A program made the translations under genes and the position numbers. Below are positions 13,459 through 56,890 of a stretch of DNA of 64,000 nt, in pieces. Under the pieces are notes generated by a model that searched no databases, had not been told where the DNA came from, and saw nothing but the letters and a program-made list of their open reading frames with translations. Location: assembly GCF_030644225.1 (NCBI RefSeq), contig NZ_CP128650.1, positions 2,098,001 to 2,162,000 on the forward strand. Reading direction: 5' to 3'. Source of the stretch: Selenomonas dianae (lineage in GTDB: Bacteria; Bacillota; Negativicutes; Selenomonadales; Selenomonadaceae). How positions within the stretch are numbered: position 1 is the stretch's first letter; the number at the start of each line of letters is the position of its first letter.

Positions 13459-13595
13459 GCGAACCCTAGTGGAACAAGCGGGAAAAGCACACGTTCTGCC
13501 CCCTGCGGATTTTATTCGTTCAAGCGAAGCGCGTTTGGAATCCGCAGGTATTTAGGCAGATAAGTGTGCGACCGCTTGTGCAACGAGGCGTTCGC
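13459..13595 (+). repeat. Long-hairpin repeat R1
   Basis: First of five ~138-bp copies. Nested stems include GCGAAC/GTTCGC, ACAAGCGG/CCGCTTGT, GCACAC/GTGTGC, TCTGCC/GGCAGA and CCTGCGGATT/AATCCGCAGG around a conserved CGTTCAAGCGAAGCGCG tip. It lies between the ATPase stop and the start of the second binding-protein gene. Confidence 0.85.
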
Positions 13596-13614
13596 GAGGG
13601 GGATGCACGACATA

Positions 13615-14400
13615 CTACAGCCGCGGAATCACGCAGACCGTACGCCCCACATTGTCGCTGTGGAAAAGGCTCAGCTTCGTTCCGTACAGTTCCTCCAGAT
13701 GCGATGCCCGTACCTCGTCCACGGATTCGTAAAAATCCATATGTGTGCCGAAGCAGAGCGCGACGCGGCTGTTCAGCAGCAGCGCCTGCTCGGGCAGATG
13801 CGTTGTAAAGACCACACCGTAGCCCTTTGCACGCAAGTTGTCGATGGTCTGTAGGACGAGCACCTGATTGCGCACATCGAGCGCCGCCGTCGGCTCGTCC
13901 ATGAGGATCAGCCTCGTATTTTGAAGCAGTGCGCGCCCGATGGCGACCAGCTGCCGCTGCCCGCCGCTGAGTTCCCTGCACTGGCGGTTGCGGATGTGCG
14001 CGATGCCCAGTTCCTCAAGAATCACATCCGTCTGCCCGTAGTCCGCCTTGCTCGGTGCGGAGAACATCCCCGTGCGCACCGTCGCACCGAAGGACACATA
14101 GTCGCGCACCGTGAACGAACTCTCTGCGCTGATAATCTGCGGAACGAACGCGATCTCCCGCGCACGCTCGCGCGGCGACATTGCATAGATGTTGTGTCCG
14201 TTCGTATAGATGCGTCCCTGTGTCAGCTCCTGAAAGCCCATCAGGCACGCGAGGAGCGTGGACTTGCCGACACCGTTGCGCCCGAGGAGCGCAAGCACCT
14301 CGCCACCCTTGATCGAGAACGAGATATGCTCGAAGATGTACGGCGCATCCGCGCGATAGCGAAACGAGCCGTCGTCGAGCCAAAGCATTGCGCGCTCCAT
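13615..14400 (-). CDS. FecE-type ABC ATPase (second system)
   Basis: 261 residues from MERAMLWLDDG; this ATG overlaps the permease stop (TGATG), which fixes the start. Walker A LGRNGVGKS, Q-loop FVPQIISAE, signature LSGGQRQLVAIGRAL, Walker B LILMDEPTAALD and switch His FTTHLPEQ are all present. It drives the permease encoded immediately upstream. The reading frame extends further 5' but only within the permease gene, so the longer version is rejected. The substrate is probably a ferric chelate, heme or corrinoid. Confidence 0.89.
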   Translation of the reverse strand: MERAMLWLDDGSFRYRADAPYIFEHISFSIKGGEVLALLGRNGVGKSTLLACLMGFQELTQGRIYTNGHNIYAMSPRERAREIAFVPQIISAESSFTVRDYVSFGATVRTGMFSAPSKADYGQTDVILEELGIAHIRNRQCRELSGGQRQLVAIGRALLQNTRLILMDEPTAALDVRNQVLVLQTIDNLRAKGYGVVFTTHLPEQALLLNSRVALCFGTHMDFYESVDEVRASHLEELYGTKLSLFHSDNVGRTVCVIPRL

Positions 14401-15404
14401 CAGAAATACCTCCGCTGGCGGTAGAGAATCCACGCGAAGAACGGTGTGCCGACAAAGCCGCAGAGAATCCCGAGCGGCACCTCTGCCGAGGTCAGCGTGC
14501 GTGCAAGGAGATCGGCGAGCATCAGGAAGGATGCCGCGAGTACCGCCGTTGCGGGCAGGAGCTGCGCGTGGTTGCCGCCGACGAGCATCCGCGCCAGATG
14601 CGGCAGGATCAGGCCGATCCACCCAATCGTCCCGCTCAGGCATACCGCCGATGCCGTGAGGAGTGTCGCGAGCGCGATCACGGCAAGCCGCTCACGGTTC
14701 ACATTCACGCCGAGACTCGCCGCCTCCTGATCCGAGAGCGAAAGCACATTCATGCGCCAGCGCATTGCAAGCAGCCCCGCGAGCGTGAGGACGATGATCG
14801 GCGTGACGTAGAGCAGGTTGTCCCACGAGACCTTTGCGAGGCTGCCGAGCTGCCAGTAGACAATATCCGCGAGCTCCGTATCGGGGTCGGCGAGGTATTT
14901 CAGCAGACCGATCACCGCCGCCATAAAGCCCGACACGATGATGCCGCAGAGCACGAGCACGATGCGTGAGCGGCTCTGCACGAGCTTCGGCAACATAAGC
15001 GTCATCGTAACCGCCGCAATGCCGCCGAGGAATGCCGCGACCGCCGTGCCGCCGAGCGTCAGATGCGCGAGAATCGCAAGGCACGCGCCCACGCTCGCGC
15101 CCTGCGAGACACCGAGGAGGTCGGGCGATACGAGATCGTTGCGGAAGACCCCCTGATACGCCGCGCCCGACACCGCGAGCGCAACACCCACGAGAATGTC
15201 GCCGAGCACGCGCGGCAGACGGATCACCATGACCACGTTATACATCGACGCGTCCCACGTGATCGGTAGTTCGATAAAATTCGACGCGAGAATTGCCACC
15301 ACCTGATCAAACGGGACGTAAAACCGCCCCACCGAAAGTGAGAGGACGAAAAACAGCACAGCGAGCACACTGCCCGCCGCCATCATACGCGCATACTGCC
15401 CCAT
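14400..15404 (-). CDS. FecCD-family ABC permease (second system)
   Basis: 334 residues from MGQYARMMAAG, preceded by AAAGGGG; an in-frame upstream extension covers the structured leader and is not expected to be translated. Family motifs: RLPRVLGDILVGVALAVSGA, FRNDLVSPDLLGVSQGASVG, SGTIGWIGLILPHLARMLVG. About ten membrane helices are expected. First gene of a minus-strand cluster that continues through ATPase, binding protein, SLH porin and the second FecBCD set. The leader upstream carries its own terminator, so the cluster is probably controlled by attenuation. Confidence 0.9.
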   Translation of the reverse strand: MGQYARMMAAGSVLAVLFFVLSLSVGRFYVPFDQVVAILASNFIELPITWDASMYNVVMVIRLPRVLGDILVGVALAVSGAAYQGVFRNDLVSPDLLGVSQGASVGACLAILAHLTLGGTAVAAFLGGIAAVTMTLMLPKLVQSRSRIVLVLCGIIVSGFMAAVIGLLKYLADPDTELADIVYWQLGSLAKVSWDNLLYVTPIIVLTLAGLLAMRWRMNVLSLSDQEAASLGVNVNRERLAVIALATLLTASAVCLSGTIGWIGLILPHLARMLVGGNHAQLLPATAVLAASFLMLADLLARTLTSAEVPLGILCGFVGTPFFAWILYRQRRYF

Positions 15405-15668
15405 AAAGCCCCTTTCCCGTTCCGCAAATCTCCAAATTTTCCCAACAAAAAATGCCCGCCGGAAAATCCGGTGAGCAATTACAGCGCACAAAAAGAGCGC
15501 AGTCCTCCCCCTGCCGGTTTTCCTTTGCAATGCAGACAAATGTCTGCGGGCAGGGAAGGACGTTTCCATACCTTCCCCCGCGACCGCGATCCCCACCGCA
15601 GTCAGGCCGACGCACCATAGCATACGCCACAGGTACGGCAGCTCGAAAAACTGAAAAACAAATGTAGT
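15405..15668 (-). promoter_or_regulatory. Long structured leader of the uptake cluster, candidate riboswitch
   Basis: About 264 nt between the predicted start site and the permease ATG. It includes strong hairpins (GGGAAGGUAUGGAAACGUCC with UUCCC, and CAGACAUUUGUCUG), a GCGC stem around CUUUUUGU, and an intrinsic terminator near the end. Length and layout suggest a metabolite-sensing RNA. I could not match it to a class; the standard cobalamin B12-box sequence was not found. Confidence 0.45.
15446..15476 (-). terminator. Leader terminator before the FecCD gene
   Basis: On the minus strand GCUCACCGG, loop AUUUU, CCGGCGGGC (one mismatch, one G-U) followed by AUUUUUUG, 42 nt before the permease start. 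Confidence 0.65.
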
Positions 15669-15675
15669 TTGTATG

Positions 15676-15704
15676 AGTATAGCATGAGATTCAAAATAAT
15701 ACAA
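15676..15704 (-). promoter_or_regulatory. Promoter of the FecCD uptake cluster
   Basis: TTGTAT (15699-15704) and TATACT (15676-15681), 17-bp spacer, minus strand; divergent from the lipoprotein promoter. Confidence 0.6.
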
Positions 15705-15743
15705 TGAGAAAAATCACTGTATTGCCCCTGCCAAACGTCCATC

Positions 15744-15772
15744 TTGCAAAAGGCGGCGTGCTCATGTAAAAT
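15744..15772 (+). promoter_or_regulatory. Promoter of the LppM-like lipoprotein gene
   Basis: TTGCAA (15744-15749) and TAAAAT (15767-15772) with 17-bp spacing, about 40 bp before the ribosome site GGAGG. Confidence 0.55.
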
Positions 15773-15813
15773 GGAATAAGATTGGTATGATTTGAATTTA
15801 TAGGAGGTATCTT

Positions 15814-16569
15814 ATGTTTCTGATACGATGCACGCACGCGATGCGCACCGTCCTCGCTGCGGCGATGCTGGGCGTACTCGCACTCACGAGCGGCTGTTTC
15901 AGCGGCGATGTGGACGTCGTCATCAACGAGGACGGCAGTGCCGACCTCAAGACCACGCTCATCAGCGTGCCGATGCTCGCCGAGATCGTCGAGCAGAGCA
16001 AGACAGCGACGACGGCAAAGAATCCGGATGCGCAGGTCACGCCCGTAACGAAGGAGAATATGTCCGGCTACGAGATCACGGAGCACTACGCGACGGTCGA
16101 AAAGCTGTCGGAGAACGACTTCTTCAAGGCGAACGAGGGCAAAAACACGGGCATCACCGCGAACAAGAGCCTGTTCTACACGGACTACAACTTCGACCTG
16201 CTCTTTGAGGGCAGCCAGAACGGCGGCGGCGCGGGTGCGTTTGCGAGCAACATCACGTTCACGTATCAGATGACGCTGCCCGTCGCACCCACGAGCTCGA
16301 ACGCCGACCGTTCGGAGGACGACGGCAAGCAGCTCACATGGAACCTCGGCAAGACCCTCGTAACAGGCGAGTCGTCCAAGATCGAGGTCGCGTTCCGCAT
16401 CTGGAACAAGACGGCGATCATCGGCGCGGTCGTCCTTGTCGTCGTTCTCCTCGGCGCGTGCGCGTTCTTCTTCCTCCGCAGACGCAAGGAGACGGAGGAG
16501 GAGCCGCAGCAGGTCATTGAGGACGCTCCCATCGACGTAACACCGAACGAGACGAACGTCAAGAACTAA
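15814..16569 (+). CDS. LppM-like (DUF3153-type) membrane lipoprotein
   Basis: 251 residues, start supported by GGAGG seven to eight bases upstream. It has a lipoprotein signal with lipobox LALTSGC (Cys about residue 28) and an extracytoplasmic beta-rich domain opening DVDVVINEDGSADLKTT, characteristic of LppM-type domains. One membrane helix follows at about 195-220 (AIIGAVVLVVVLLGACAFFF), then a basic stop-transfer RRRKE and an acidic tail. A lipid anchor at one end plus a C-terminal helix is the normal layout of this family. Function unknown; LppM domains occur in envelope-associated proteins. Monocistronic, with its own promoter and terminator. Confidence 0.7.
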   Translation: MFLIRCTHAMRTVLAAAMLGVLALTSGCFSGDVDVVINEDGSADLKTTLISVPMLAEIVEQSKTATTAKNPDAQVTPVTKENMSGYEITEHYATVEKLSENDFFKANEGKNTGITANKSLFYTDYNFDLLFEGSQNGGGAGAFASNITFTYQMTLPVAPTSSNADRSEDDGKQLTWNLGKTLVTGESSKIEVAFRIWNKTAIIGAVVLVVVLLGACAFFFLRRRKETEEEPQQVIEDAPIDVTPNETNVKN

Positions 16570-16584
16570 AGATTGGCAAGCAAA

Positions 16585-16626
16585 AACGAGGAGCCCCTGC
16601 AAACGTGCAAGGGTTCCTCGTTTTTT
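16585..16626 (+). terminator. Terminator of the lipoprotein gene
   Basis: AACGAGGA, ...CCCCTGCAAACGTGCAAGGG..., TCCTCG followed by TTTTTT; near-perfect stem 15 bp after the stop codon. Confidence 0.9.
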
Positions 16627-16672
16627 GTAAATGGGTATTGGGCTCAGTTGTAATGCCCGCGACAGGCGAAAA

Positions 16673-16723
16673 TCGGACGAAAAAATCTACGCCAATCTGA
16701 GGGTCTATTTTATCAGCGATTCC
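16673..16723 (-). repeat. Partial MITE
   Basis: Matches about 51 bp of one end of the MITE family (TCGGACGAAAAAATCTACGC ... TTTTATCAGCGATTCC). The other two thirds are missing. The rest of 16627-16862 shows no gene. Confidence 0.75.
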
Positions 16724-16862
16724 TTTATTCTGTCCATATCAAAGCAAACGAAGGCATCGCCCCTCTCCGTTTGTTGTGGTCGCACTCTGAGCGGCGACAC
16801 ACGCGCGGTTCTATGGTCATTGTATCTGATTTGCGCAAAAAATCAATCCCATTAAACACACG

Positions 16863-18080
16863 TCAACCGCACTGCAAAATCAGGTGGACACGGTCGAAAT
16901 TCCGTGCGGCAAGGTCTTCCTTCCGAATCCAGAAGTAGATCAGACCACAGTCGCCGTACATCAGCTCCGTATCCTCGTCCGTCACCGTCCCCATTTGCAG
17001 CAGCAATACCCAACGATCCACGGATGTTTCCACCGGATCCGCATCCTCCTCTTCGGGGCGCCGTGCGTGCACATCCCCCTCGATGTCTCTGCTGTAAAGC
17101 TCACACTCCGGCTCCATTTCGCCCTGAATCTCATCCGCATAGCCGAGCATCTTCATGGGATTGTCCTCGTGTGCGGCAGCATCGTATCCGAACTCCGCCC
17201 GCAGTTCGTTGTAGGTGTCCCAATCCACCTCTTTCCCGCTCCTGCGGCTGTATGCAAAGGACGACAGGAGACTGACGGCATCCGCAAACGTCAGTGCCTG
17301 TTCGCCCACGCTCCACTCCTTCGTTTCCGCCGGGATCTCCGTCGAAACAAGCTGCTCCGTCTCCGGAAAATAATAGACGCGCGCATAGCCCTTGTGCCCC
17401 GGTTCGAAGCCCCACTCCATCGACATGGTCTCATAGAAGAAGCTGAGCACGCCCGTCTTCGGCAGGAGCCCCGTGCGGTCGTACTGCGCGGCTTCGCCAA
17501 GGTTGATCTGGGCGAGAAAGGCAAGCGGACGGTTCTTCGTCACTCCCTCGAAGTCCGTTCCCTTATAGTACGGCCAGGCAAAATCTGCGGGCAGGTCGGG
17601 CGTTCCGTAGAACTTGCTTGCCCCGACGGGAAGTTTTTTCTGCGAAGGATGATGTGTAATCACAATCTCCCGCCGCTGTGTGCGTTCAAAGAACGCCGTC
17701 ACCGCACGGCGCAGACATTCCCGCTCCGCTTCAACTTCGCGCACGAGCTGTTCCACGCTCATAGAAGCGGGTTCCTCCGCATACCAGCCGTGCCTGTTTT
17801 CAACCGCCTCTTTGCACCGTTCCGTCATCCCGCCGGGCTTGCCAAAGAAGACGCGCTCGATCTCCGCCTTGCCCGCCGCATCATGCTCCGCCGCTTCCAA
17901 ATATTGCAGAGCCAGACGCAAAGCACAAAGTTTCGGATAACGATTGACCGCAAAAAAGTACAGGGCATAGCCCATGCGGTAGTTCCAGAGCGCATCACGT
18001 GCGGATTCCGAAACCTCGTTCAGTGTCTTGATGGCATCGAAAAAGCTGCGCTCCTCGATGGATTCCTGCGCGGTCTTCAT
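16863..18080 (-). CDS. DUF1963 (YwqG-like) protein
   Basis: 405 residues. The ATG chosen overlaps the stop of the TRAP permease gene (ATGA). The N-terminal ~150 residues are helical and charged. From about 155 onward it resembles DUF1963/YwqG: KLPVGASKFYGTPDLPADFA, RPLAFLAQINLGEAAQYDRT, GVLSFFYETMSMEWGF, and a C-terminal RWVLLLQMGTVTD...YGDCGLIYFWIRKEDL. YwqG-type proteins are cytoplasmic and of unknown biochemical role. Coupling to the transporter gene implies co-expression but not necessarily a common function. The acidic insert at 330-370 (IEGDVHARRPEEEDADPVET) is unusual. Confidence 0.75.
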   Translation of the reverse strand: MKTAQESIEERSFFDAIKTLNEVSESARDALWNYRMGYALYFFAVNRYPKLCALRLALQYLEAAEHDAAGKAEIERVFFGKPGGMTERCKEAVENRHGWYAEEPASMSVEQLVREVEAERECLRRAVTAFFERTQRREIVITHHPSQKKLPVGASKFYGTPDLPADFAWPYYKGTDFEGVTKNRPLAFLAQINLGEAAQYDRTGLLPKTGVLSFFYETMSMEWGFEPGHKGYARVYYFPETEQLVSTEIPAETKEWSVGEQALTFADAVSLLSSFAYSRRSGKEVDWDTYNELRAEFGYDAAAHEDNPMKMLGYADEIQGEMEPECELYSRDIEGDVHARRPEEEDADPVETSVDRWVLLLQMGTVTDEDTELMYGDCGLIYFWIRKEDLAARNFDRVHLILQCG

Positions 18081-19996
18081 GCCGCTGCCTTCTTCACGCG
18101 GATATACTGCATCGCAAGAATCACGGCGAAGATGGCACACCCGATGATGTCGGTGGTGCCGCCGGGCTTTATCATGAACAGCCCCGCACCGATGAGGAGG
18201 ATGCGCTCATACATGCGGCAGTGATCGGCAAGGAAGCCGCAGAGCGCGGAGCTGAGGGCGATCATGCCCGCGAGTGCGGAGAGTGTCGCCATAACGAGGG
18301 CGAACGGCGTCGCGTCCACCATCAGAATCACGGGGGACAACACGAAGATGTACGGGATGATGAACGCCGCAATCGCGAGTTTCGACGCGTGTACGCCGGT
18401 TCTCAGCGCATTTCCCCCGCTGATGCCCGCCCCTGCGTAGGCGGCGAGCGCGACGGGCGGGGTCACGTCCGCGATGATGCCGAAGTAGAACACAAACATA
18501 TGCGCCGCGAGGATGGGTACGCCCATCTGGACGAGTGCGGGCGCGGCAATGGTCGAGGTGATGACATAGTTCGCCGTGGTCGGTACGCCCATGCCGAGGA
18601 CGATCGCCGTAATCATGGTGAAGAACATCGCGGGCAGGAGCATCCCTCCCGCCATCTCGATCAGTCCCGAGGCGAGGCGCAGTCCGACGCCCGTCTTGGT
18701 GACGACACCGATGATGATGCCCGCCGCCGCACAGGCGATGAGCACGCCGAGCACCGCCTTTGCCCCGCGCTCCAGCCCGTAGACGATCTCAATCGGCTTC
18801 ATGCGCGTAGATTTCCGCAGCATGGCACAGGTGATGGAGAGGAAAATGGCGACAAGCGCCGCACGCATGGGCGTATACCCCGAGACGAGGAGATAGACGA
18901 TAACGACGAGCGGGATCGCGAGATGGCCGCGCTCCTTTAGGAGGGTCAGGGGATTCGGCAGTTCGCTGCGCGGGATTCCTTTGAGGTTCTTGCGCTTTGC
19001 CTCGAAATGCACGCCGAGCCACACGCCCGTAAAGTAGAGGAGCGCAGGGATCGCCGCCGCCTTGACGACCTCGATGTAGGACACGCCGACGAACTCCGCC
19101 ATGAGGAACGCCGCCGCCCCCATGACGGGAGGCATGAGCTGCCCGCCCGTGGATGCCGCCGCCTCGACCGCGCCCGCGAAGTTCGGATGGTAGCCGAGCT
19201 TTTTCATCATCGGGATGGTGAGCGAGCCCGTACCGACGACGTTTGCGACGGAGCTGCCCGAAACCGTTCCCATGAGGCCGCTTGAAAGCACGGCGACCTT
19301 CGCAGGGCCGCCGCTCGCCCAGCCCGCGACAGCGTTGGCAAGGTCGATGAAAAACTTGCCGAGCCCCGTGCTCTCAAGGTACGCGCCAAAGAGGATGAAC
19401 AGGAAGATGAACGTCGAGGACACGCCGAGCGGGATGCCGAAGATGCCCTCCGTCGTATAGTAGAGGTGACTGATGAGCTGTTCGGGCGAAAGTCCTCTGT
19501 GCGCGAGCACACCCGGCATATACGGACCGAGGAAGGCATACGCGAGGAAACAGAGCACGACCGTCACCATCGGCAGCCCCACGACGCGCCGTGCCGCCTC
19601 GATGACGAGCAGGATGCCGATCCCGCCCACGACAATATCCGCCGTCGTAGCAGAGCCCGCACGCGTCACGAGTTCGCGGTACTGGACGACGATGTAGGCG
19701 GGTGCCGCCGCGCCGAGGACAGCAAGGAGCACGTCGATCGGGTGGAAAAAGTGATCGCGCGTCCACGCACGGCGGCAGGGATAGAGCAGATATGCGAGCG
19801 AGAGTCCGAAACCGAGGTGAACGGCACGCTGCAGCTGTGCGTCGAGGATGCCAAAGGTCGCCGTATAGAGCTGAAAGATGGAAAATGTGATGGCAATGGC
19901 GGCGATGATTTTCTGCGGCAGCCCTGCATAGTGGGCGGTGTTTGATTCGCGGTCGTATTTTTTGAGGACTGCTTCGGCAGTCTTGTGATCGGTCAT
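18077..19996 (-). CDS. TRAP transporter fused permease (TAXI type, DctQ-DctM fusion)
   Basis: 639 residues from MTDHKTAEAVLKKY, preceded by AAAGGATG; the upstream extension is rejected. The first ~170 residues contain DctQ-like helices, the remainder the DctM-like domain with about twelve helices (SGSSVANVVGTGSLTIPMMK, TGGQLMPPVMGAAAFLMAEF, GMGVPTTANYVITSTIAAP). Such fused permeases work with TAXI-family soluble receptors, two of which are encoded just upstream, and a DUF1850 protein. Transport is driven by an ion gradient; substrates for TAXI systems are mostly organic acids such as 2-oxoglutarate or glutamate, but the one here is unknown. Confidence 0.93.
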   Translation of the reverse strand: MTDHKTAEAVLKKYDRESNTAHYAGLPQKIIAAIAITFSIFQLYTATFGILDAQLQRAVHLGFGLSLAYLLYPCRRAWTRDHFFHPIDVLLAVLGAAAPAYIVVQYRELVTRAGSATTADIVVGGIGILLVIEAARRVVGLPMVTVVLCFLAYAFLGPYMPGVLAHRGLSPEQLISHLYYTTEGIFGIPLGVSSTFIFLFILFGAYLESTGLGKFFIDLANAVAGWASGGPAKVAVLSSGLMGTVSGSSVANVVGTGSLTIPMMKKLGYHPNFAGAVEAAASTGGQLMPPVMGAAAFLMAEFVGVSYIEVVKAAAIPALLYFTGVWLGVHFEAKRKNLKGIPRSELPNPLTLLKERGHLAIPLVVIVYLLVSGYTPMRAALVAIFLSITCAMLRKSTRMKPIEIVYGLERGAKAVLGVLIACAAAGIIIGVVTKTGVGLRLASGLIEMAGGMLLPAMFFTMITAIVLGMGVPTTANYVITSTIAAPALVQMGVPILAAHMFVFYFGIIADVTPPVALAAYAGAGISGGNALRTGVHASKLAIAAFIIPYIFVLSPVILMVDATPFALVMATLSALAGMIALSSALCGFLADHCRMYERILLIGAGLFMIKPGGTTDIIGCAIFAVILAMQYIRVKKAAA

Positions 19997-20088
19997 AGAG
20001 AGTTCACATCCTTTGAGGAAAGTGTCTATATATTTCGCAAAAACAGCACAAAAGAAATACGAGGCCGCCGGCCGGCAGCCTCGGAATG

Positions 20089-20556
20089 TCATAGAAAATA
20101 GGTGTAGAGCGGCGCGACGACGAGGTCGATGCGCGTGCCGACGGGATACATCTCGTAGGCGGGAACACGCGTCCCGCCCGCCTCAATCGTCAGCTGTGTG
20201 CCGACACCCGTACGGAGACTGAGCGCAGGATAGTCGCGATCCATGTCGAGGACGAAGTAGTCGCCCTCCTGTCGGAACGTCCCCTCCTCGGGGAGAAACG
20301 GCAGTCCGACCCCGTGCGACTGATAGCGCGTACCCGTGAGGTGGAAATGTCCGTCCGCATACGCAGTCAGGAACTCCTCGACGGGGGTTTTCTGTACGGA
20401 GTGGATAAAATGAACCGTCAGAGGAACTTCGTCGCGCAGCTGCCGCACGAGGACAGTCTTTTGCCCGTCCACCTGCAAAAAGAGAGCGGGTGTGCTCAGA
20501 ATATCAAACGCAACGAGCACTGCCGCCGCCGCGAGCGCAATCAGATACGCTCTCAT
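20089..20556 (-). CDS. DUF1850 protein, TRAP-associated
   Basis: 155 residues with one N-terminal membrane anchor/signal (LIALAAAAVLVAFDIL) followed by a small extracytoplasmic domain with HFIHSVQKTPVEEFL, typical of DUF1850. The family is repeatedly encoded between TAXI receptors and fused TRAP permeases, which is exactly the arrangement here: the start overlaps the end of the receptor gene by four bases. A role as an accessory of the transporter is inferred from this linkage. Confidence 0.85.
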   Translation of the reverse strand: MRAYLIALAAAAVLVAFDILSTPALFLQVDGQKTVLVRQLRDEVPLTVHFIHSVQKTPVEEFLTAYADGHFHLTGTRYQSHGVGLPFLPEEGTFRQEGDYFVLDMDRDYPALSLRTGVGTQLTIEAGGTRVPAYEMYPVGTRIDLVVAPLYTYFL

Positions 20557-21527
20557 TTCTCGTTAAAGAACTTCTCCGCGCCCGCATTCATCGGCAGGGA
20601 CATCCCCGCCTTTGCCGTGTCCTTCGTGATCTGCTTGCCGACGGCGTGCGCTGCCTGCAGACGGTCGAGATTCGAGAAGATTGCCTTGGTGATGCTGTAG
20701 CCGAGATCGGCGTCTACCGAAGGACCCGCGACGAGCATCGCCATCACGGAGACGCTTGGGACAGCCTCGTCAAAGCCCGCATACGTCCCGGCGGGAATGA
20801 CGGTCTTGGTGTAGAACGGATACTTTGCGATCAGATCGTCCGCTATTTTATCCTCCACCGGCAGCAGACGCACGGGGTTCTGCGCAGCGATGTCCTGCAC
20901 GGATGCCGTCGGGTAGCCCGCCGTCAGAACGGCGACATCCACATTGCCGTCCTTGAGTGCGCTCGCGCCCTCGGCGAACGAGAGGAACTTTGCATCAATA
21001 TCATCATACGATACGCCGTATGCGGCGAGGATCTGACGCACGTTTGCCTCCACGCCCGAGCCTGCCGCGCCGACCGCGACGCGCTTGCCCTTCAGCTCTG
21101 CGAGATTCTTGATCCCCGAGGACTGGAGCGTGACGAACTGGCACGTCTCGGGATAGAGCGAGGCGATGCCCTGCAGACCGTCCACCTTCTTGTCCGCGAA
21201 CATTTCCGTACCGTTGACCGCATAGAAGGTAATATCGTTCTGCACCGTCGCGAGATCCACCGCCCCGTCGCGCAGCATATTGATATTGGCAACGGATGCA
21301 CCCGTGCTCTGGGCGCTGGCGTTCATGCCCTTAATATCCTTGTTCAGCACCTCGGCGATTGCACCGCCGATGGGGTAGTACGTACCTGCCGTGCCGCCCG
21401 TTCCGATGTTGAGGAACTTCTTATCTCCCGACGAAGCGGAGTCGCCGCCGCAGCCGGTGAGAAGCGCGGCAGAGAATACAAGGACCGCACCTGCCGCAAG
21501 AATTTTCTTTACGGTAGAGATATTCAT
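20553..21527 (-). CDS. TAXI-family TRAP receptor lipoprotein (copy 1)
   Basis: 324 residues from MNISTVKKILAAG (ribosome site GGAGGGAAAG). Lipobox ALLTGC; the mature part has FLNIGTGGTAGTYYPIGGAI, which is the family hallmark, and AVLTAGYPTASVQDIA. Solute receptor for the fused TRAP permease. It is a close paralogue of the next gene and shares long identical stretches including the C-terminal SLPMNAGAEKFFNEK. The pair probably binds related solutes or reflects a dosage duplication. Confidence 0.92.
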   Translation of the reverse strand: MNISTVKKILAAGAVLVFSAALLTGCGGDSASSGDKKFLNIGTGGTAGTYYPIGGAIAEVLNKDIKGMNASAQSTGASVANINMLRDGAVDLATVQNDITFYAVNGTEMFADKKVDGLQGIASLYPETCQFVTLQSSGIKNLAELKGKRVAVGAAGSGVEANVRQILAAYGVSYDDIDAKFLSFAEGASALKDGNVDVAVLTAGYPTASVQDIAAQNPVRLLPVEDKIADDLIAKYPFYTKTVIPAGTYAGFDEAVPSVSVMAMLVAGPSVDADLGYSITKAIFSNLDRLQAAHAVGKQITKDTAKAGMSLPMNAGAEKFFNEK

Positions 21528-21604
21528 GTTCTTTCCCTCCATGATGAAATAGAAAAGCTCTCGAACTATCGTCGCGTACGGCGATAATGAATGTATATTA
21601 TCAT

Positions 21605-21638
21605 AAAGCATCCCCCACGTGCAAGCGGGAGATGCTTT
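21605..21638. terminator. Hairpin between the two TAXI receptor genes
   Basis: AAAGCATC and GATGCTTT flank CCCC/GGGG-type pairing; no clear T-run follows. It may be an RNA processing or partial termination site separating expression of the two receptors. Confidence 0.5.
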
Positions 21639-21673
21639 GTATGATGGTATACACGCGCATACGGACGAAACTC

Positions 21674-25254: not shown

Positions 25255-25260
25255 ATATGT

Positions 25261-33821: not shown

Positions 33822-33884
33822 CTTATGCCCTCCTCCCCACCTAAATTCATACGGAGCGTTTGATAGAGCGGCGTGCCCCTATAA

Positions 33885-34023
33885 GTGAACCCTAGTGAAG
33901 CAAGTGAGTAAAGGGGGCGTTCTGCCCCCTGCGGACTTCTTTCGTTCAAGCGCAGCGCGTTTAAGAAGTCCGCAGGTATTTCGGCAGATAAGCACACGAT
34001 CACTTGCGTAACGAGGCGTTCAC
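33885..34023 (+). repeat. Long-hairpin repeat R2
   Basis: Stems GTGAAC/GTTCAC, GCAAGTGA/TCACTTGC, TCTGCC/GGCAGA and CTGCGGACTTCTT/AAGAAGTCCGCAG around CGTTCAAGCGCAGCGCG. One stem (GGGGGC opposite GCACAC) is broken in this copy. It lies 64 bp upstream of the mtaB start. Confidence 0.85.
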
Positions 34024-34103
34024 GTTAGGGGCTGCCGCTCAGACAACAGTTTTTATATTGTATCACAAATCAAACGCTCCGCAATAAATTTTTCTCCCAA
34101 AAC

Positions 34104-48381: not shown

Positions 48382-48400
48382 TGTGTCTCCTTCGCTTCCT

Positions 48401-49210: not shown

Positions 49211-49226
49211 AATGACCTCCTTTTCC

Positions 49227-49916
49227 TCAATATAATGCAAGCATCGTCCGCAGCGCAGCAAGCAACGATACCGTTTCGCGATACTCCGCACTCTGCCGTG
49301 CTGCGGCGCTGGCATTCATGCCGTTGGCGGCACGGGTGAGCTTTGCAATCTTCCCTTCGATGTGCTCCCGCAGGAGCGGATCGCGCTTTTCGTAAAGTTT
49401 TGCGCCGATGTGGAGGAGTACGTCGTCGGGCATCGCTGCCGCACCATGCTCGGCGCGGATGATCTCATAGAGGTGTCCGCCCGCGCGTGCAAGCGCCTCG
49501 TCCGTGATGTTCCAACCGTTTCCGTAGAGCCAGCGGCGCAGCTTTGCCGCGCTGTTCATGGGCTGCAGGACGAGGGTCTGCACGTCCACAAGAACATCGG
49601 GCGCACCGGACAAAATATCCATGATAAGTGCGCCGCCCATGCCCGCAATGACGATGGATTCCGCTTCGCCCGGCGCGAGGATAGACAGCCCGTCGCCCTG
49701 CCGCACGTCGATCTCACGTGTGAGCCGCTGCGTGACGGTCGTACGCCGCGCCGCCGCGCACGCGCCCGCGCTGAGATCGCCGACGACGGCACGCGGCGCA
49801 ATGCCCCTCATGACGAGCGTCGCGGCGAGATAGGCGTGGTCGCCGCCGATGTCCGCGACGGCAGTGCCGTGCGGCACAAATGCGGCAAGTGCCGCAAGAC
49901 GTGCGTCGAGCTGCAT
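49227..49916 (-). CDS. trmK: tRNA (adenine-22-N1) methyltransferase TrmK
   Basis: 229 residues. SAM-binding motif AVADIGGDHAYLAATLVMRG, then QGDGLSILAPGEAESIVIAG and the family motif MGGALIMDIL. TrmK methylates N1 of A22 in the D-loop of tRNAs for Ser, Tyr and others in Gram-positive-type bacteria. It is 16 bp upstream of the Nif3-like gene and close to the rpoD-dnaG block. Repeat R3 sits 62 bp upstream. Confidence 0.92.
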   Translation of the reverse strand: MQLDARLAALAAFVPHGTAVADIGGDHAYLAATLVMRGIAPRAVVGDLSAGACAAARRTTVTQRLTREIDVRQGDGLSILAPGEAESIVIAGMGGALIMDILSGAPDVLVDVQTLVLQPMNSAAKLRRWLYGNGWNITDEALARAGGHLYEIIRAEHGAAAMPDDVLLHIGAKLYEKRDPLLREHIEGKIAKLTRAANGMNASAAARQSAEYRETVSLLAALRTMLALY

Positions 49917-49977
49917 CTCTTTCCCCCTCTCCTGTAACGCATAGACGGTATCTGACTGTGTGGTGCGAAGGCCCTAA

Positions 49978-50116
49978 ACGAACCCTAGTGGAGCAAACGG
50001 GGAAAGCGTGCGTTCTGTCCCCGGCGTGCTTCTTTCGTTCAAGCGCAGCGCGTTTAAGAAGTGCGCCGGTATTTAGACAGATAAGCACGCGACCGTTTGC
50101 GCAACGAGGCGTTCGT
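49978..50116 (+). repeat. Long-hairpin repeat R3
   Basis: The best-formed copy. Stems: ACGAAC 49978-49983 / GTTCGT 50111-50116; GCAAACGG 49993-50000 / CCGTTTGC 50093-50100; GCGTGC 50006-50011 / GCACGC 50085-50090; TCTGTC 50014-50019 / GACAGA 50076-50081; CCGGCGTGCTTCTT 50021-50034 / AAGAAGTGCGCCGG 50056-50069; AAGCGC 50041-50046 / GCGTTT 50050-50055. All are nested. Confidence 0.9.
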
Positions 50117-50157
50117 GTGGGTCTCGCACCATAAGTACTTCTCCACAGACATAAGAA

Positions 50158-50183
50158 AGGAGTGTAACCTCTGCGTTACACTC
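50158..50183 (-). terminator. Terminator of tRNA-Asn
   Basis: GGAGTGTAAC/GTTACACTCC stem followed by TTTCTT on the minus strand, 14 bp after the tRNA. Confidence 0.85.
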
Positions 50184-50196
50184 CGTAATGAACAAA

Positions 50197-50272
50197 TGGC
50201 TCCTCGAACTGGACTCGAACCAGTGACATTCTGATTAACAGTCAGACGCTCTACCGACTGAGCTATCGAGGA
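50197..50272 (-). tRNA. tRNA-Asn (anticodon GTT)
   Basis: Acceptor TCCTCGA/TCGAGGA, D-arm GCTCAGTCGGTAGAGC, anticodon loop CTGTTAA (GTT), T-arm CTGGTTCGAGTCCAG, CCA encoded (50197-50199). Own promoter and terminator. Confidence 0.97.
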
Positions 50273-50289
50273 ATGTGTCAGACACACGT

Positions 50290-50318
50290 ATTATAAGGGC
50301 TATGCGCCGTCCTGTCAA
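50290..50318 (-). promoter_or_regulatory. Promoter of tRNA-Asn
   Basis: TTGACA (50313-50318), 17 bp, TATAAT (50290-50295) — consensus strength, as usual for stable RNA. Confidence 0.9.
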
Positions 50319-50330
50319 GAAAAATGTTGC

Positions 50331-50359
50331 TTGCACGGGCAAAACATATGTGTTAGAAT
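50331..50359 (+). promoter_or_regulatory. Promoter of toxin-like mRNA (locus 2)
   Basis: TTGCAC (50331-50336), 17 bp, TAGAAT (50354-50359). Confidence 0.65.
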
Positions 50360-50420
50360 CAAAACAGGCGTTGCCATACGGTAGGCGGTCGATTCTTAGC
50401 CCCTGAGAGGGGGTTCGCTT

Positions 50421-50489
50421 ATGGGCCCATACGAATTTCTTTCGCTGGTGTTCCTCGTTACGATTTGCATCGTGATGTCAAAAGCATAA
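50421..50489 (+). CDS. 22-residue type I toxin-like membrane peptide (locus 2)
   Basis: Encodes MGPYEFLSLVFLVTICIVMS followed by KA: one hydrophobic helix preceded by the Y-E-F motif also found in locus 1 (MSYYEF). Ribosome site GAGAGGGGG. Such holin-like peptides are toxic when overproduced and are controlled by an antisense RNA. Here an antisense promoter exists at 50587-50615 and the two transcripts share a bidirectional terminator. It was missed by length cutoffs. Inference rests on layout and composition. Confidence 0.7.
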   Translation: MGPYEFLSLVFLVTICIVMSKA

Positions 50490-50580
50490 GAACCCCGCCG
50501 CACAGTCCCCAAACGTTCGGCGGGGTTCTTATTCCAAACAACTATTGGGGCTGACCGTTTACCGGCAGTGCCCTTTTTGT
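50484..50580 (-). ncRNA. Antisense RNA of toxin locus 2
   Basis: Predicted transcript of about 97 nt from the start set by the 50587-50615 promoter, ending after the shared hairpin at 50490-50531 (AACCCCGCCG/CGGCGGGGTT, then U-rich). It covers the toxin mRNA 3' end. It also carries a block (GGUAAACGGUCAGCCCC) resembling the toxin leader (GGUAGGCGGUC...AGCCCC). Confidence 0.65.
50490..50531. terminator. Bidirectional terminator of toxin locus 2
   Basis: AACCCCGCCG ... CGGCGGGGTT with TCTTATT on one side and TTCTTATGC on the other, functioning for both the toxin-like mRNA and its antisense RNA. Confidence 0.85.
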
Positions 50581-50586
50581 ATGCTT

Positions 50587-50615
50587 ATTATACGATATTT
50601 CTCCGCACGCGTCAA
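50587..50615 (-). promoter_or_regulatory. Promoter of antisense RNA (locus 2)
   Basis: TTGACG (50610-50615), 17 bp, TATAAT (50587-50592), minus strand. The -35 abuts the rpoD stop codon. Confidence 0.75.
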
Positions 50616-51734
<1,119 letters not shown>

Positions 51735-51771
51735 AACGCTGTCCTCCTATCGTATTCGTCAGGCTCTCGCC

Positions 51772-52914
<1,143 letters not shown>

Positions 52915-53012
52915 CGTATCCCCCCTCCTTTCGATTCGTTTTCCGATTCCATGAAACAATTCCTGTGTATCCTATCGGTGGAATACCACCCGCACAAAAG
53001 TACCGTTCCGCT

Positions 53013-54794
53013 TTATTCGCGTGAATTTTCACGGGCGATTTCATCCTGTATCTTCTTCACTTCGTTTAATTCGTCAATGTATGCCGCTTTTCCTGCTTGC
53101 ATCATCTCCTCGGCACAACGCGTATGACGGGCAAGCGCAGCGGTCAGATATGCGCGTCGGAGTGTGCCGAGCGCCTCCCGATAGGAGGCGGGTGTCCGCC
53201 CCTCCCCGGCGATGGCGCGGGTGAGCTCCGCCCCTGCCGCTGTAGGCTGTGCGGCGATAAAGGCGGCATCCAATGCGCCGCCTGCGGCGCTGTGCTGTTC
53301 CATGGCACGAAGGATTTCCGCCGTGCCCGCATCGGGAAAATCGGCAAGCGGAATCAAAGATAAAATTTCGGTGAGAATCGAAGGATCATGCCAAACCGCC
53401 GCAATCAGTTCGCGCCCTGCCCGCCGCAGCGGATCGTCCGGCAAATGCGCAGGGGCATCCTGCGCCGTGCTCTGCTGCGACGGCTCTGCGCCGCCGCGCC
53501 GCACATAGGCACGCAGCGCATCCGCCACCACGCCCTCGTCGAGAAAGAGCTCCGCCGCCGTCCGGCGCACATAGGCGGCACGGGTGACGGCATCCAGCTC
53601 TGCGAGCACGGGCAGCATCGCGCGGAGTGCACTGCGCTGCCCCTCCACACCGTCCGTCATGTGCGCGCGGATGTGGCGCAGACGAAAGGCGGGAACGGGG
53701 ACGGCATCGCCCACGAGCGCGCGAAACGCCTCCGCGCCGTGCGTGCGGACGTACTCGTCGGGATCTTTACCGTCGGGCAGGAGGAGAACACGCACCTCGG
53801 CGGCACGTCCGCGCACCGCCGAAAGTGCGCGCAGGGTCGCCTCCTGTCCCGCCGCGTCGCTGTCGTAGCAGAACACGATGCGCGGCGCACGGCGCAGGAG
53901 CAGCGTCGCGTGTTCCTCTGTAAATGAAGTGCCGAGGGTCGCGACGACATTCAAAACGCCTGCTTCCCATGCGGCAATCGCGTCCATATAGCCCTCTACG
54001 ACAATCGCCGCGCCCTCACTTGCAATCGCGCGATGTGCGCGGTCAAGCCCAAAGAGGAGCTTTCGCTTGTTAAAGACGGGGGTTTCCGCCGTGTTGAGGT
54101 ATTTCGGCTGTGCATCGCCGAGCGCACGCCCGCCGAAGGCGACGATGCGCCCGCGCTCGTCCGCAATGGGGATCATGACGCGTCCCCGAAAGCGATCGTA
54201 GACGCCGTCGCCGCGCTCACGTTTCACGGCAAGCCCCGCCGTCACGAGAAGGTGTTCGGCGATGCCGCGCTTTTGGAACGCGTCGGAGAGCTTTGACCAC
54301 GCGTCGGGCGCGAAGCCGATGCCATACCGCTCGATTGCCTCCGCCGTGATGCCGCGCCCCGCGAGATATGCGCGTCCCGCTTCCCCGTAACGCGTCACGG
54401 TGAGGCAGTTGTGAAAAAAGTCACGTGCAAGCGCATTAACTTTTCTGAGATCATCCAGTTCCCTAAGACGCGCCTCCGCGCGCGGATCGCGTTTCTGCGC
54501 AGGCTTTTCGATACCGAGCTGCTCCGCCTGCCGCAGGATCGCCTCAAACGGCGTGATGTGCTCGATGAGCGAGATGAATTTGAACGCGTCGCCGCCCGCG
54601 TGGCAGCCGAAGCAGTAGAAGAAGCCGTCGGCGGGCACGACGGAGAACGACGCTGTCTTTTCGTTGTGGAAGGGGCAGCAGCCCCAGTAGCGATTGCCCT
54701 TGCGCTTCAGCGGAACATACCCCTGCACGACGGCGAGGATGTCGGTCTGCGCGCGCACCTGCTGCACAAAGGCCTCCATCCTCGGGTCACGCAT
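53013..54794 (-). CDS. dnaG: DNA primase DnaG
   Basis: 593 residues. CHC2 zinc finger (C40, H43, C61, C64: WGCCPFHNEKTASFSV ... FYCFGCHAGGD), catalytic core with TOPRIM motifs IVVEGYMDAIAAWEAGVLNV and CYDSDAAG, and a helicase-binding C-terminal region. Synthesises RNA primers at the fork. Part of the dgt-dnaG-rpoD block typical of Firmicutes; GGAGACACCT upstream. Repeat R4 lies 72 bp before the start. Confidence 0.96.
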   Translation of the reverse strand: MRDPRMEAFVQQVRAQTDILAVVQGYVPLKRKGNRYWGCCPFHNEKTASFSVVPADGFFYCFGCHAGGDAFKFISLIEHITPFEAILRQAEQLGIEKPAQKRDPRAEARLRELDDLRKVNALARDFFHNCLTVTRYGEAGRAYLAGRGITAEAIERYGIGFAPDAWSKLSDAFQKRGIAEHLLVTAGLAVKRERGDGVYDRFRGRVMIPIADERGRIVAFGGRALGDAQPKYLNTAETPVFNKRKLLFGLDRAHRAIASEGAAIVVEGYMDAIAAWEAGVLNVVATLGTSFTEEHATLLLRRAPRIVFCYDSDAAGQEATLRALSAVRGRAAEVRVLLLPDGKDPDEYVRTHGAEAFRALVGDAVPVPAFRLRHIRAHMTDGVEGQRSALRAMLPVLAELDAVTRAAYVRRTAAELFLDEGVVADALRAYVRRGGAEPSQQSTAQDAPAHLPDDPLRRAGRELIAAVWHDPSILTEILSLIPLADFPDAGTAEILRAMEQHSAAGGALDAAFIAAQPTAAGAELTRAIAGEGRTPASYREALGTLRRAYLTAALARHTRCAEEMMQAGKAAYIDELNEVKKIQDEIARENSRE

Positions 54795-54866
54795 AGGTGT
54801 CTCCTTATTTTACTAAATGGCTCTATGGTAAATGTTACAGACGAGTGCGGACGGCGATGCTCCGTA

Positions 54867-55004
54867 GCAAACCCTAGTGGAGCAAGCGGAAGAGAAGGCA
54901 CGTTCTGCCCCCTGCGGATTTTGACCGTCCAAGCGAAGCGCGTTTGAAATCCGCAGGTATTTCGGCAGATAAGTGCCCGACCGCTTGCGTAACGAGGGTT
55001 CTGC
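54867..55004 (+). repeat. Long-hairpin repeat R4
   Basis: Stems GCAAGCGG/CCGCTTGC, GGCAC/GTGCC, TCTGCC/GGCAGA, CCTGCGGATTT/AAATCCGCAGG; the outer stem is shifted (GCA-AACCC with GGGTTCTGC, one bulge). 72 bp upstream of dnaG. Confidence 0.85.
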
Positions 55005-55043
55005 GAGGAGCTCGCGTGTCCGTAACATTTGACGTAGCCCCTG

Positions 55044-56051
55044 CTAAATCGGTTTGAATGTCATCTGATCCACGGGCGGGATGTAGATCTCGCGAAAGAG
55101 CGCGACGGCGAAGCTGTCCGTCAGCCCCGCCACATAGTCCACCACGCACTGCTCGCGCCCCCAACGCTCCGCGCGCGCGATGAACTCGGGCGGCAACGTG
55201 TGGAAATACACGGTGAAGTGATCCATCAGGGCGCGCAGGACGAAGCCCGCCTGTGCGCGCTCGTGTGCAAGCGCTTTGGAGTGGTAGATGCGCTCGAACA
55301 TAAAGGAGCGGAACGCATCCATCACGCGCTGCACCCCGTCCGAAAGAGCGGCATCGCCGCACGCCTCCGAGGTCACGATCATATCAGACACCATGCTCGT
55401 GATCATCGCGGAGGTGTCCGTGCCGAACGCGTCACGCACCTCGGCGGGCAGTTCCTCGGGCGTGAGCAGCCCCGCGCGGATGCTGTCGTCGTAGTCGTGG
55501 CAGAGGTAGGCAATGCGGTCGGCGATGCGCACGATCCGCCCCTCGAACGTCTGCGGCACGCCCTTGCCCGTATGGTTCAGGATGCCGTCGCGCACCGCTC
55601 CCGTGAGGTTCAGCCCGTGCCCGCCGCGTTCCAGGACTTCGACCATGCGCAGACTCTGCTCGTTGTGGGAAAAATGCCCCGTAATCTCCTCCACGACCGC
55701 CTCACCCGCGTGCCCGAACGGCGTGTGTCCGACATCGTGACCGAGGGCGACCGCCTCCGTCAGATCCTCGTTGAGGCGCAGCGCACGCGCAATCGTGCGC
55801 GAGATCTGCGCCACCTCAAGGCTGTGCGTCATGCGCGTGCGGTAGTGATCGCCCGCGACGATGTAGACCTGCGTCTTGTGCTTGAGCCGTCGGAATGATT
55901 TGGAGTGGAGAATGCGGTCACGGTCGCGCTGAAACTTCGTGCGAAAGGGACACTCCTCCATCGGGTGACTGCGCGTTGCCGCTCTGCTCCGCGCCGCCAG
56001 AGGTGAGAGGAGTGTGTCCTCCTGCGTCTCAAGCCGTTCTCGGACGGTCAA
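55044..56051 (-). CDS. dgt: Deoxyguanosinetriphosphate triphosphohydrolase-like protein (Dgt)
   Basis: 335 residues from TTG, chosen because GGGAGG lies eight bases upstream; a GTG nine bases earlier sits on the ribosome site. HD-domain phosphohydrolase: MTHSLEVAQISRTIARALRL, GHDVGHTPFGHAGEAVVEEI, GILNHTGKGVP. Hydrolyses dGTP (and other dNTPs) to the nucleoside and triphosphate, controlling dNTP pools. Type 2 dGTPase length fits. Beside dnaG, as in related genomes. Confidence 0.9.
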   Translation of the reverse strand: MTVRERLETQEDTLLSPLAARSRAATRSHPMEECPFRTKFQRDRDRILHSKSFRRLKHKTQVYIVAGDHYRTRMTHSLEVAQISRTIARALRLNEDLTEAVALGHDVGHTPFGHAGEAVVEEITGHFSHNEQSLRMVEVLERGGHGLNLTGAVRDGILNHTGKGVPQTFEGRIVRIADRIAYLCHDYDDSIRAGLLTPEELPAEVRDAFGTDTSAMITSMVSDMIVTSEACGDAALSDGVQRVMDAFRSFMFERIYHSKALAHERAQAGFVLRALMDHFTVYFHTLPPEFIARAERWGREQCVVDYVAGLTDSFAVALFREIYIPPVDQMTFKPI

Positions 56052-56067
56052 GGCTGCCACCTCCCGC

Positions 56068-56448
56068 CTATTTGACGACCATGACGGGGATCTTTGCCTC
56101 CTCGATCACCTTCTGGCTGACACTGCCGATGAGCACGCCCTTCAGCAGTCCGAGCCCGCGGCTGCCCATGATAATCATGTCGCTGCCCGCCTCGTCTGCG
56201 ACCTCCAGGATGCTCCGCGCGACATGGCCGCTCTTGACGTGCTTGCGCGCCTTGCGGCTCTCTGAGAGTTTTTCCCAGATGCGGTCAAAGACGATGTGGC
56301 TCGGAATGTCCTTGTTGATGTTGCTCGCGACATAGACAAAATCCAGTTCGGCATCGCATTTCTCCGCAAAGTACAGCGCCTCATCGACCGCCTTGCAGCC
56401 GCCCACCGATCCATCGACCGGAACGAGGATCTTTTTGATCGCACTCAT
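56068..56448 (-). CDS. Universal stress protein (UspA family)
   Basis: 126 residues from MSAIKKILVPVDGSVGGCKA (AGGAGG seven bases upstream; an ATG one codon earlier is equally possible). The ATP-binding C-terminal motif G-2x-G-9x-GS is present (GSRGLGLLKGVLIGSVSQKV). Small cytoplasmic stress protein. Not obviously in an operon with dgt (16-bp gap, same strand) so it may be co-transcribed. Repeat R5 lies upstream. Confidence 0.9.
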   Translation of the reverse strand: MSAIKKILVPVDGSVGGCKAVDEALYFAEKCDAELDFVYVASNINKDIPSHIVFDRIWEKLSESRKARKHVKSGHVARSILEVADEAGSDMIIMGSRGLGLLKGVLIGSVSQKVIEEAKIPVMVVK

Positions 56449-56587
56449 CATAACCCCTCCTAAATCATGTTTTAACAAGAAAGATTTCCTAAGGTATCAG
56501 TATATTTCGATGATTGGGATGTAAAATCCTCTCTCCGCGAAAAAAAAGTATTGCAGAACAAACGGCTCTGGAGAGTGCAGCCCCAGA

Positions 56588-56890
56588 GCGAACCCTAGTG
56601 AAGCAAGTGAGTAAAGCGTGCGGTACGCCCCGGCGTACTTCTTTCGTTCAAGCGAAGCGCGTTTAAGGAAGCACTGATAAATTCAGCCACGCCATCTTGA
56701 CGCATCTTTTTTGCCCGCACTGTGTCGGCAAATCCTCCACATAGCCCTTGCTATGCGTCCGGTTTGCCTCCTTGTTCGGACGAAAAATCTACGCCAATCT
56801 GACGAACTTCATTTTATCAGCGATTCCTTAAGAAGTGCGCCGGTATTTAAGCGTACAAGCACGCGATCACTTGCGTAACGAGGCGTTCGT
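56588..56890 (+). repeat. Long-hairpin repeat R5 split by MITE D
   Basis: R5 arms 56588-56666 and 56828-56890 (138 bp without the MITE). Stems GCGAAC/GTTCGT (G-U), GCAAGTGA/TCACTTGC, GCGTGC/GCACGC, GTACGC/GCGTAC and CCGGCGTACTTCTT/AAGAAGTGCGCCGG. The insertion point is inside GTTTAAGAAG of the hairpin tip. Confidence 0.9.
56667..56827 (-). repeat. MITE copy D, nested in repeat R5
   Basis: 161 bp, GGAAGCACTGATAAATTC ... TTTATCAGCGATTCC, flanked by TTAA at 56663-56666 and 56828-56831: a 4-bp target duplication within R5. Shows the MITE is younger than this R copy. Confidence 0.96.

What the first reader, a model, noticed from the sequence alone, without database searches (positions are those of the whole stretch)
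13459..56890. Five-copy ~139-bp hairpin element with compensatory changes in every stem
Copies R1 (13459-13595), R2 (33885-34023), R3 (49978-50116), R4 (54867-55004) and R5 (56588-56890, split) fold as one long nested hairpin. Stems covary. Outer stem: GCGAAC/GTTCGC, GTGAAC/GTTCAC, ACGAAC/GTTCGT. Second stem: ACAAGCGG/CCGCTTGT, GCAAGTGA/TCACTTGC, GCAAACGG/CCGTTTGC. Third: GCACAC/GTGTGC, GCGTGC/GCACGC, GGCAC/GTGCC. Fourth: TCTGCC/GGCAGA, TCTGTC/GACAGA, GTACGC/GCGTAC. The tip sequence CGTTCAAGCG(A/C)AGCGCG is conserved. Selection for structure, not sequence, is the simplest reading. Wobble pairs (R5 outer stem, R3 fifth stem) are G-U in the plus reading but would be A-C on the minus strand, which favours a plus-strand RNA. 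All copies have the same orientation and lie 60-140 bp upstream of a minus-strand gene. Function unknown: new ncRNA, cis-regulator or mobile cruciform.
Basis: seen in the sequence. Interest (0 to 1): 0.82.

Follow-up and report, generated by a model that had tools for sequence, protein, structure and literature searches.

The report
Dispersed bacterial DNA hairpin element family
The five hairpins belong to a large, apparently undescribed family of scattered hairpin elements whose tip sequence hardly changes while its paired stems change freely, probably mobile DNA that folds as a single strand, present in two classes of bacteria.

Summary
The five copies belong to a family with 56 tip-bearing copies in this 2.39-Mb Selenomonas-type chromosome. 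In 49 aligned copies, 33 of 61 pairs change on both sides (0 of 500 shuffles reach this). Each aligned copy also has a further outer stem. The same 20-base tip crowns hairpins with other stem sequences in S. ruminantium, Mitsuokella and contigs labelled Lachnospiraceae or Eubacterium, with equally strong covariation. No Rfam family matches. Orthologous sites in relatives are often empty.

The tip contains GC-GNA-GC with N free, a published rule for very stable DNA mini-hairpins. Best reading: a non-autonomous, REPIN-like mobile element acting as folded single-stranded DNA. It is not a REPIN as defined: Y1 transposase is missing from eight of twelve element-bearing congeners and reverse transcriptase from 13 of 14. 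The moving enzyme is unknown; template switching may help keep stems paired.

The parts
13443..13609 (+). Copy R1: core 13459-13595 plus outer variable stem (arms about 13443-13455 and 13598-13609)
   Evidence: outer stem is helix 1
33866..34040 (+). Copy R2: core 33885-34023 plus outer stem (ends approximate); third stem carries two G-A mismatches
49961..50131 (+). Copy R3: core 49978-50116 plus outer stem (ends approximate); no tip at the orthologous site in the 11 relatives compared, two of which keep what looks like a remnant of the 3' arm
54830..55030 (+). Copy R4: core 54867-55004, stem extended outwards to AAATGTTAC/GTAACATTT; element absent from the site in the 11 relatives compared
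56575..56901 (+). Copy R5: core 56588-56890 plus outer stem (ends approximate), split by another repeat at about 56664-56834; 1 of 11 relatives (G005) has a copy at the same site
13517..13536 (+). R1 tip CGTTCAAGCGAAGCGCGTTT; contains GCGAAGC, a GNA-loop mini-hairpin
33943..33962 (+). R2 tip (N = C)
50036..50055 (+). R3 tip (N = C)
54926..54945 (+). R4 tip (variant CGTCCAAG, N = A)
56645..56664 (+). R5 tip (N = A), directly beside the interrupting repeat

Best explanation
The copies are a family of small non-autonomous mobile elements that act as DNA. The plus-sense strand, when single (at a replication fork or during transfer), folds into a long bulged hairpin capped by a GC-GNA-GC mini-hairpin. 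A trans-acting enzyme or host protein, not identified here, recognises the tip and the fixed bulges, while the stems only need to be paired, so their sequence drifts as matched pairs. Copies insert between genes in either orientation, seem to be converted by sister copies and decay by internal deletion. Shown: family, fold, covariation, intergenic location, presence or absence at orthologous sites, fork-related orientation bias, DNA-type loop sequence. Inferred: single-stranded DNA as the active form, recognition of the tip, conversion between copies, transposition as the means of spread.
For: 56 tip-bearing copies, none inside a predicted gene (gene calls home-made). At orthologous sites the element is in 0 of 11 relatives for R4, 1 of 11 for R5, 2 of 9 for metK, 2 of 9 for rqcH, one of these nine having Ns there. 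No orientation preference to genes, 23 sense: 26 antisense, but a lean against the fork, 40:16 in G000 and 101:52 over five genomes, seen with leading-strand genes (24:14) and lagging-strand genes (10:2). In 56 G000 tips position 11 is the only one taking all four bases (39 A, 11 C, 5 T, 1 G) and 17 of 20 positions do not vary; GNA or GNNA loops on at least two G-C pairs make very stable DNA mini-hairpins (passages of PMC4686876). G-T exceeds A-C in three groups. Separate covariation in other lineages: 46 of 62 and 52 of 69 pairs. No conserved flank that could be a promoter or terminator.
Against: No enzyme is linked: among the 25 widest protein clusters beside 80 loci I saw, by eye, no candidate mover; Y1 transposase and reverse transcriptase do not follow the element. 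No consistent target duplication could be defined. The fork bias is modest, absent in G001 (10:9) and G012 (7:8), some copies are shared by descent, and the terminus of four genomes was assumed to lie opposite dnaA. Plus-sense G-T excess fits RNA as well as single-stranded DNA, and the structures used for that count were chosen with RNA rules. The tip is invariant only among copies found by the tip; at least one full-length G000 copy (142426) has another tip. No movement has been observed. No exact tip in viral contigs and no blastn match of copy R2 in phages or plasmids, where a mobile element might be expected.
Confidence: 0.55

Rival explanations
1. A structured RNA: a dispersed small RNA or cis-acting element whose plus-strand fold is selected.
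For: Strong covariation, plus-sense wobble excess, conserved bulges and tip. The rqcH copy sits, by eye, downstream of a promoter-like sequence and upstream of the start codon, in sense orientation.
Against: 26 of 49 copies between co-directional genes are antisense; no conserved sequence beyond the outer stem; no Rfam match; tip loop is GNA with N free, and in the separate repeat B the loops GTTA, GATA and GTCA in 8 of 10 copies break the RNA GNRA rule (read; GNRA rule recalled).
Confidence: 0.2
2. Passive palindromes: the arms stay complementary because replication template switching repeatedly rewrites one arm from the other, with no function of the fold.
For: Template switching makes multibase compensatory changes and perfects stems (abstract of PMC8794818; passages of PMC7202029); few one-sided intermediates; the outermost stem differs between most copies yet pairs in 86.8% of cells; fork-related orientation bias.
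Against: Tip and bulges are kept for very long: the same tip in contigs of two bacterial classes and recurring internal loops. Arm correction should erase bulges. It does not explain multiplication to 56 copies.
Confidence: 0.15
3. A host-serving DNA or mRNA feature such as a transcript-end stabiliser, RNase III site or nucleoid-protein site, kept by selection on the host.
For: Rather regular spacing of the core to neighbouring genes: 18-33 nt between its 3' side and the stop codon in 16 of 26 antisense copies, 35-63 nt before the start codon in 18 of 23 sense copies.
Against: Two of the 14 genomes of the genus have none at the thresholds used, sites differ between close species, and orientation to genes is balanced. 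The spacing may only reflect tolerated insertion room.
Confidence: 0.1

Closest known systems
REPINs with RAYT (Y1) transposases
   Same: Short, intergenic, dispersed, non-autonomous, predicted hairpin in single-stranded DNA or mRNA, compensatory changes in the spacer part of the hairpin (passages of PMC3116915)
   Different: Here the tip, not the two ends, is fixed; 140-250 nt; no Y1 transposase in 8 of 12 element-bearing genomes of the genus, including the window's own
ERIC elements
   Same: About 127-bp repeats predicted to fold as one long stem-loop (passages of PMC2267715); intergenic, mover unknown (recalled)
   Different: Not aligned with ERIC here; this family has a fixed tip with freely changing stems across genera and occurs in Negativicutes and Clostridia-labelled contigs
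MITEs
   Same: Small, palindromic, multi-copy, no gene; in S. ruminis two inverted hairpins form a unit of about 700 bp with matching ends
   Different: MITE ends are conserved for a transposase (recalled); here the ends are the least conserved part, and no parent transposon was found (none was searched for genome-wide)
Integron attC sites (recalled)
   Same: Folded single strand with conserved extrahelical bases and variable stems
   Different: Tip is nearly invariant, copies scattered rather than in cassette arrays; integrase not tested

Membership tests
REPIN/RAYT | Y1 (RAYT-type) transposase encoded in the same genome | tested here: not met
   PF01797 not found at E 1e-6 in G000, G003, G005, G007, G008, G009, G011, G012 (all with the element); found in G001, G004, G006, G010 and in G002 and G013 (without)
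REPIN/RAYT | Intergenic inverted repeat folding as a hairpin in many copies | tested here: met
REPIN/RAYT | Conserved REP 16-mers at the two ends | tested here: not met
   Ends are the most variable part of A1 and the tip the most conserved
ERIC | ERIC consensus sequence | not tested
   No alignment with ERIC was made; copy R2 had no blastn match in the plasmid or phage sets
MITE | Conserved terminal inverted repeats shared with an autonomous transposon | tested here: inconclusive
   Longer shared ends, by eye, in about 8 of 56 copies and in the S. ruminis unit; whole genomes were not searched for a transposon with such ends
MITE | Target-site duplication | tested here: inconclusive
   Flanks too diverged to define one; CTAAAT on both sides of R4 is one possible case
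Known structured RNA (Rfam 15) | Match to a covariance model at its gathering score | tested here: not met
   No match on the element in the whole window, 14 further loci or three stretches searched by E-value; best sub-threshold hit MIR856, 24.5 bits against a cut-off of 297
Retron, group II intron or other reverse-transcribed element | Reverse transcriptase in the genome | tested here: not met
   PF00078 in 1 of 14 genomes of the genus (G005 only)
Integron attC | Conserved core-site boxes and an integron integrase | not tested
   Resemblance recalled only

The most novel reading that the evidence does not exclude
A new class of single-stranded-DNA hairpin transposition, shared by Negativicutes and Clostridia, in which an enzyme of an unknown type recognises a GNA-loop DNA mini-hairpin at the end of a stem of arbitrary sequence.
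Probability: 0.3. Interest if true: 0.82.

Novelty: new variant of a known kind. Interest (0 to 1): 0.62.

Why it matters
Dispersed palindromes are common, but here the family can be followed across genera and apparently across classes because its tip stays nearly fixed while the stems are rewritten in matched pairs. That makes two questions testable: what moves such elements when the known hairpin transposase is absent, and how far template switching, rather than selection, writes compensatory changes. The second bears on how covariation is read as evidence for functional RNA: this element would pass a covariation test for RNA while several signs point to DNA.

Tried and rejected
REP/RAYT origin: rejected on enzyme distribution. 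Reverse-transcribed element: rejected. Known RNA family: no Rfam match; sub-threshold hits are mostly miRNA models, with Cyano-2 (E 0.016, between two hairpins), snoZ185 and BtsR1. Target-derived outer stem: I first thought the element inserted into existing palindromes; the empty sites lack the outer arms, so the arms go with the element. Long form as ancestral RNA: four G000 copies carry an extra domain of about 116 nt (folds 41-43); the same domain occurs inside other repeats, so it reads as a second element inserted into this one. Phage or plasmid origin: no exact tip in viral contigs; 24 hits of a 17-base pattern with 16 fixed letters are about what I would expect by chance in so large a collection (rough estimate; not inspected). 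Linked gene: none seen among the 25 widest clusters (stop-to-stop frames, judged by eye). Literature: no paper holds any of five 14-base tip strings; combinations with Selenomonas, Lachnospiraceae, repeat, hairpin and REP terms gave nothing on point in the listings; open-licence PMC only.

Rows dropped: A1 and A2 use 49 of 56 copies (4 long forms and 3 truncated or split ones, R5 included, left out). A3 uses 13 copies from 12 of the 23 loci folded that are not labelled Selenomonadaceae or Selenomonadales; the other 11 were left out by eye, for a different architecture or a contig edge; L104 and L126 look like chance matches. A4 uses 22 of 24 candidates; 20 rows are distinct. The tip composition of other loci is biased, since most were found by an exact pattern, and 21 places without a hairpin were dropped there. 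Left-end hits without an intact tip: eight were inspected: four mini forms, two shorter remnants, one split copy with a one-base tip deletion, and one full-length copy with another tip (142426); a few three-mismatch hits were not looked at.
Full report
What was checked. The five copies lie where stated. The four uninterrupted ones fold as one nested hairpin far better than shuffles. R5 is split by another repeat.

A genome-wide family. A search for the tip with up to three mismatches gives 57 hits, and none for the reversed control pattern. One is a match without a hairpin; 56 are copies. A search for the left end finds further copies without an intact tip; of eight inspected, four are mini forms, two remnants, one split, and one full-length with another tip. 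Of 60 genomes (the own one included) 16 have the tip at two mismatches or fewer: 12 of 14 in the genus and 4 in other genera, G016, G022, G026 and G034. With a covariance model built from 49 copies, 34 of 151 family genomes (own included) and 10 of 30 genera match at E 0.001. G002 and G013, of the same genus, have none in either search.

Covariation. On alignment A1 94.8% of cells pair; 33 of 61 pairs have changes on both sides, against 21.1 in shuffles (0 of 500 as high); sliding partners by one to three columns drops pairing to 32-47%. In place, at the metK site, the outer arms read TTGAGC/GCTCAA, TTGTGC/GCACAG and CCGTGC/GCACGG in G000, G005 and G011.

Other lineages. Besides Selenomonas, Centipeda and Mitsuokella the list includes contigs labelled Lachnospiraceae, Eubacterium and Clostridiales, many of them MAGs, so labels may err. 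Most of those examined form hairpins of roughly 180-240 nt with stems unlike those of the window copies; a few, such as L104 and L126, do not. Covariation there is separate and strong: 46 of 62 pairs in 13 Clostridia-labelled copies and 52 of 69 in 22 copies (20 distinct) from S. ruminantium, Mitsuokella and related labels, again 0 of 500 shuffles. In the latter group a GCGNAGC-like box also stands on both sides of the outer internal loop.

DNA or RNA. All 56 copies are intergenic by a home-made gene call. Of 55 with both neighbours called, 26 are antisense to both, 23 sense to both, 4 lie between divergent and 2 between convergent genes. Beyond the outer stem no position is conserved: the commonest base stays mostly under 0.5 from 24 to 120 nt upstream of CCCTAGTG, and under 0.5 beyond about 100 nt downstream of the tip start. 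G-T exceeds A-C in all three groups, which points to the plus-sense strand, as RNA or single-stranded DNA, with the caveat that the structures were chosen with RNA rules. In outer and middle stems of G000 only 28 G-T and 12 A-C stand among 1,372 cells. The tip holds GC-GNA-GC; in the 56 G000 tips N is 39 A, 11 C, 5 T, 1 G, and 17 of 20 positions do not vary. GNA or GNNA loops on at least two G-C pairs form exceptionally stable DNA mini-hairpins (passages of PMC4686876). Copies point against the replication fork in 40 of 56 cases in G000 (p 0.0018), 18 of 23 in G011, 26 of 40 in G005, 10 of 19 in G001 and 7 of 15 in G012; together 101 of 153 (dnaA; skew of G000). In G000 the bias holds for leading-strand genes (24:14) and lagging-strand genes (10:2). 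DNA folds of R1 and R3 are somewhat stronger on the plus strand (-39.6 v -36.6 and -42.1 v -37.2 kcal/mol), as the RNA folds are. These features favour DNA but do not exclude RNA.

Mobility. At six element sites compared with relatives: R3 has no tip in 11 of 11 (two keep what looks like the 3' arm); R4 is without the element in 11 of 11; R5 is shared with G005 only; metK with 2 of 9; rqcH with 2 of 9, one of the nine having Ns there. The site in L019 is shared with G007, reduced to a small hairpin in G009, absent in G012 and not comparable in six. At that site G007 carries the same outer stem but an interior like R3, which suggests conversion between copies. In S. ruminis two inverted hairpins and the DNA between them form a unit of about 700 bp with matching ends, 92.9% identical over 709 columns between two loci.

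Enzymes. Y1 transposase (PF01797) is not found in 8 of 12 element-bearing genomes of the genus and is found in both element-free ones. Reverse transcriptase is in 1 of 14. Among the 25 widest protein clusters beside 80 loci no candidate mover stood out. DDE transposases, tyrosine recombinases and relaxases were not tested.

Interpretation. The element works like a REPIN (short, intergenic, hairpin in single-stranded DNA or mRNA, compensatory spacer changes; passages of PMC3116915) but fails two REPIN tests, the enzyme and conserved ends. The best reading is a non-autonomous DNA hairpin element with an unidentified partner that reads the tip and bulges. Template switching (abstract of PMC8794818; passages of PMC7202029) probably helps keep the arms paired; it does not explain the tip, the bulges and the copy number. 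I did not find the element in print with the searches, which cover open-licence PMC papers only.

Noticed in passing
L022:40-335 (-), L004:2860-3170, L032 about 7445-7855, L007 about 2769-3180, L059:15300-15610; also L044 about 4000-4120, L048, L155, L181, L188: A second dispersed element of about 116-125 nt (starting CTGACCTGTCC, ending GTTGACCGCT, two hairpins with mostly GNA or GNNA tips). Of ten copies seen in fetched loci, seven sit in the same internal loop of the hairpin element and three in other palindromic repeats, as if it targets hairpins. No Rfam match.
   Followed up: partly
window 56664-56834, 58292-58461, 59934-60105; related ends at 3943, 26454, 36193, 39532: Another dispersed repeat with ends like AAGGAAGCACTGATAAA / TTTATCAGCGATTCCTT; it interrupts R5 and, in G001, the rqcH copy.
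   Followed up: no
L054, L055, L056, L057 upstream of rqcH: The rqcH promoter region carries different repeats in different species at about the same spot, perhaps an insertion hotspot.
   Followed up: no
L073, L074, L075, L109: S. ruminis-type composite unit: two inverted hairpins flanking a spacer that differs in length, with ends like TAAATTGCAGTTT...AAACTGCAATTTA.
   Followed up: partly
G005:C1 410230/410465, 907425/907664, 1203852/1204070, 1568786/1569052: Four same-orientation pairs of the element about 220-270 bp apart in G005, apparently tandem duplicates.
   Followed up: no
L242 (G000:C1 near 142426, - strand): A full-length copy whose tip differs from the family motif, missed by the tip search.
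   Followed up: no
window 7629-7762 (-) and 15504-15660 (-): Two Moco (molybdenum/tungsten) riboswitches, Rfam RF01055.
   Followed up: no
window 60129-63959 (-): A 1276-aa reading frame with long internal repeats.
   Followed up: no
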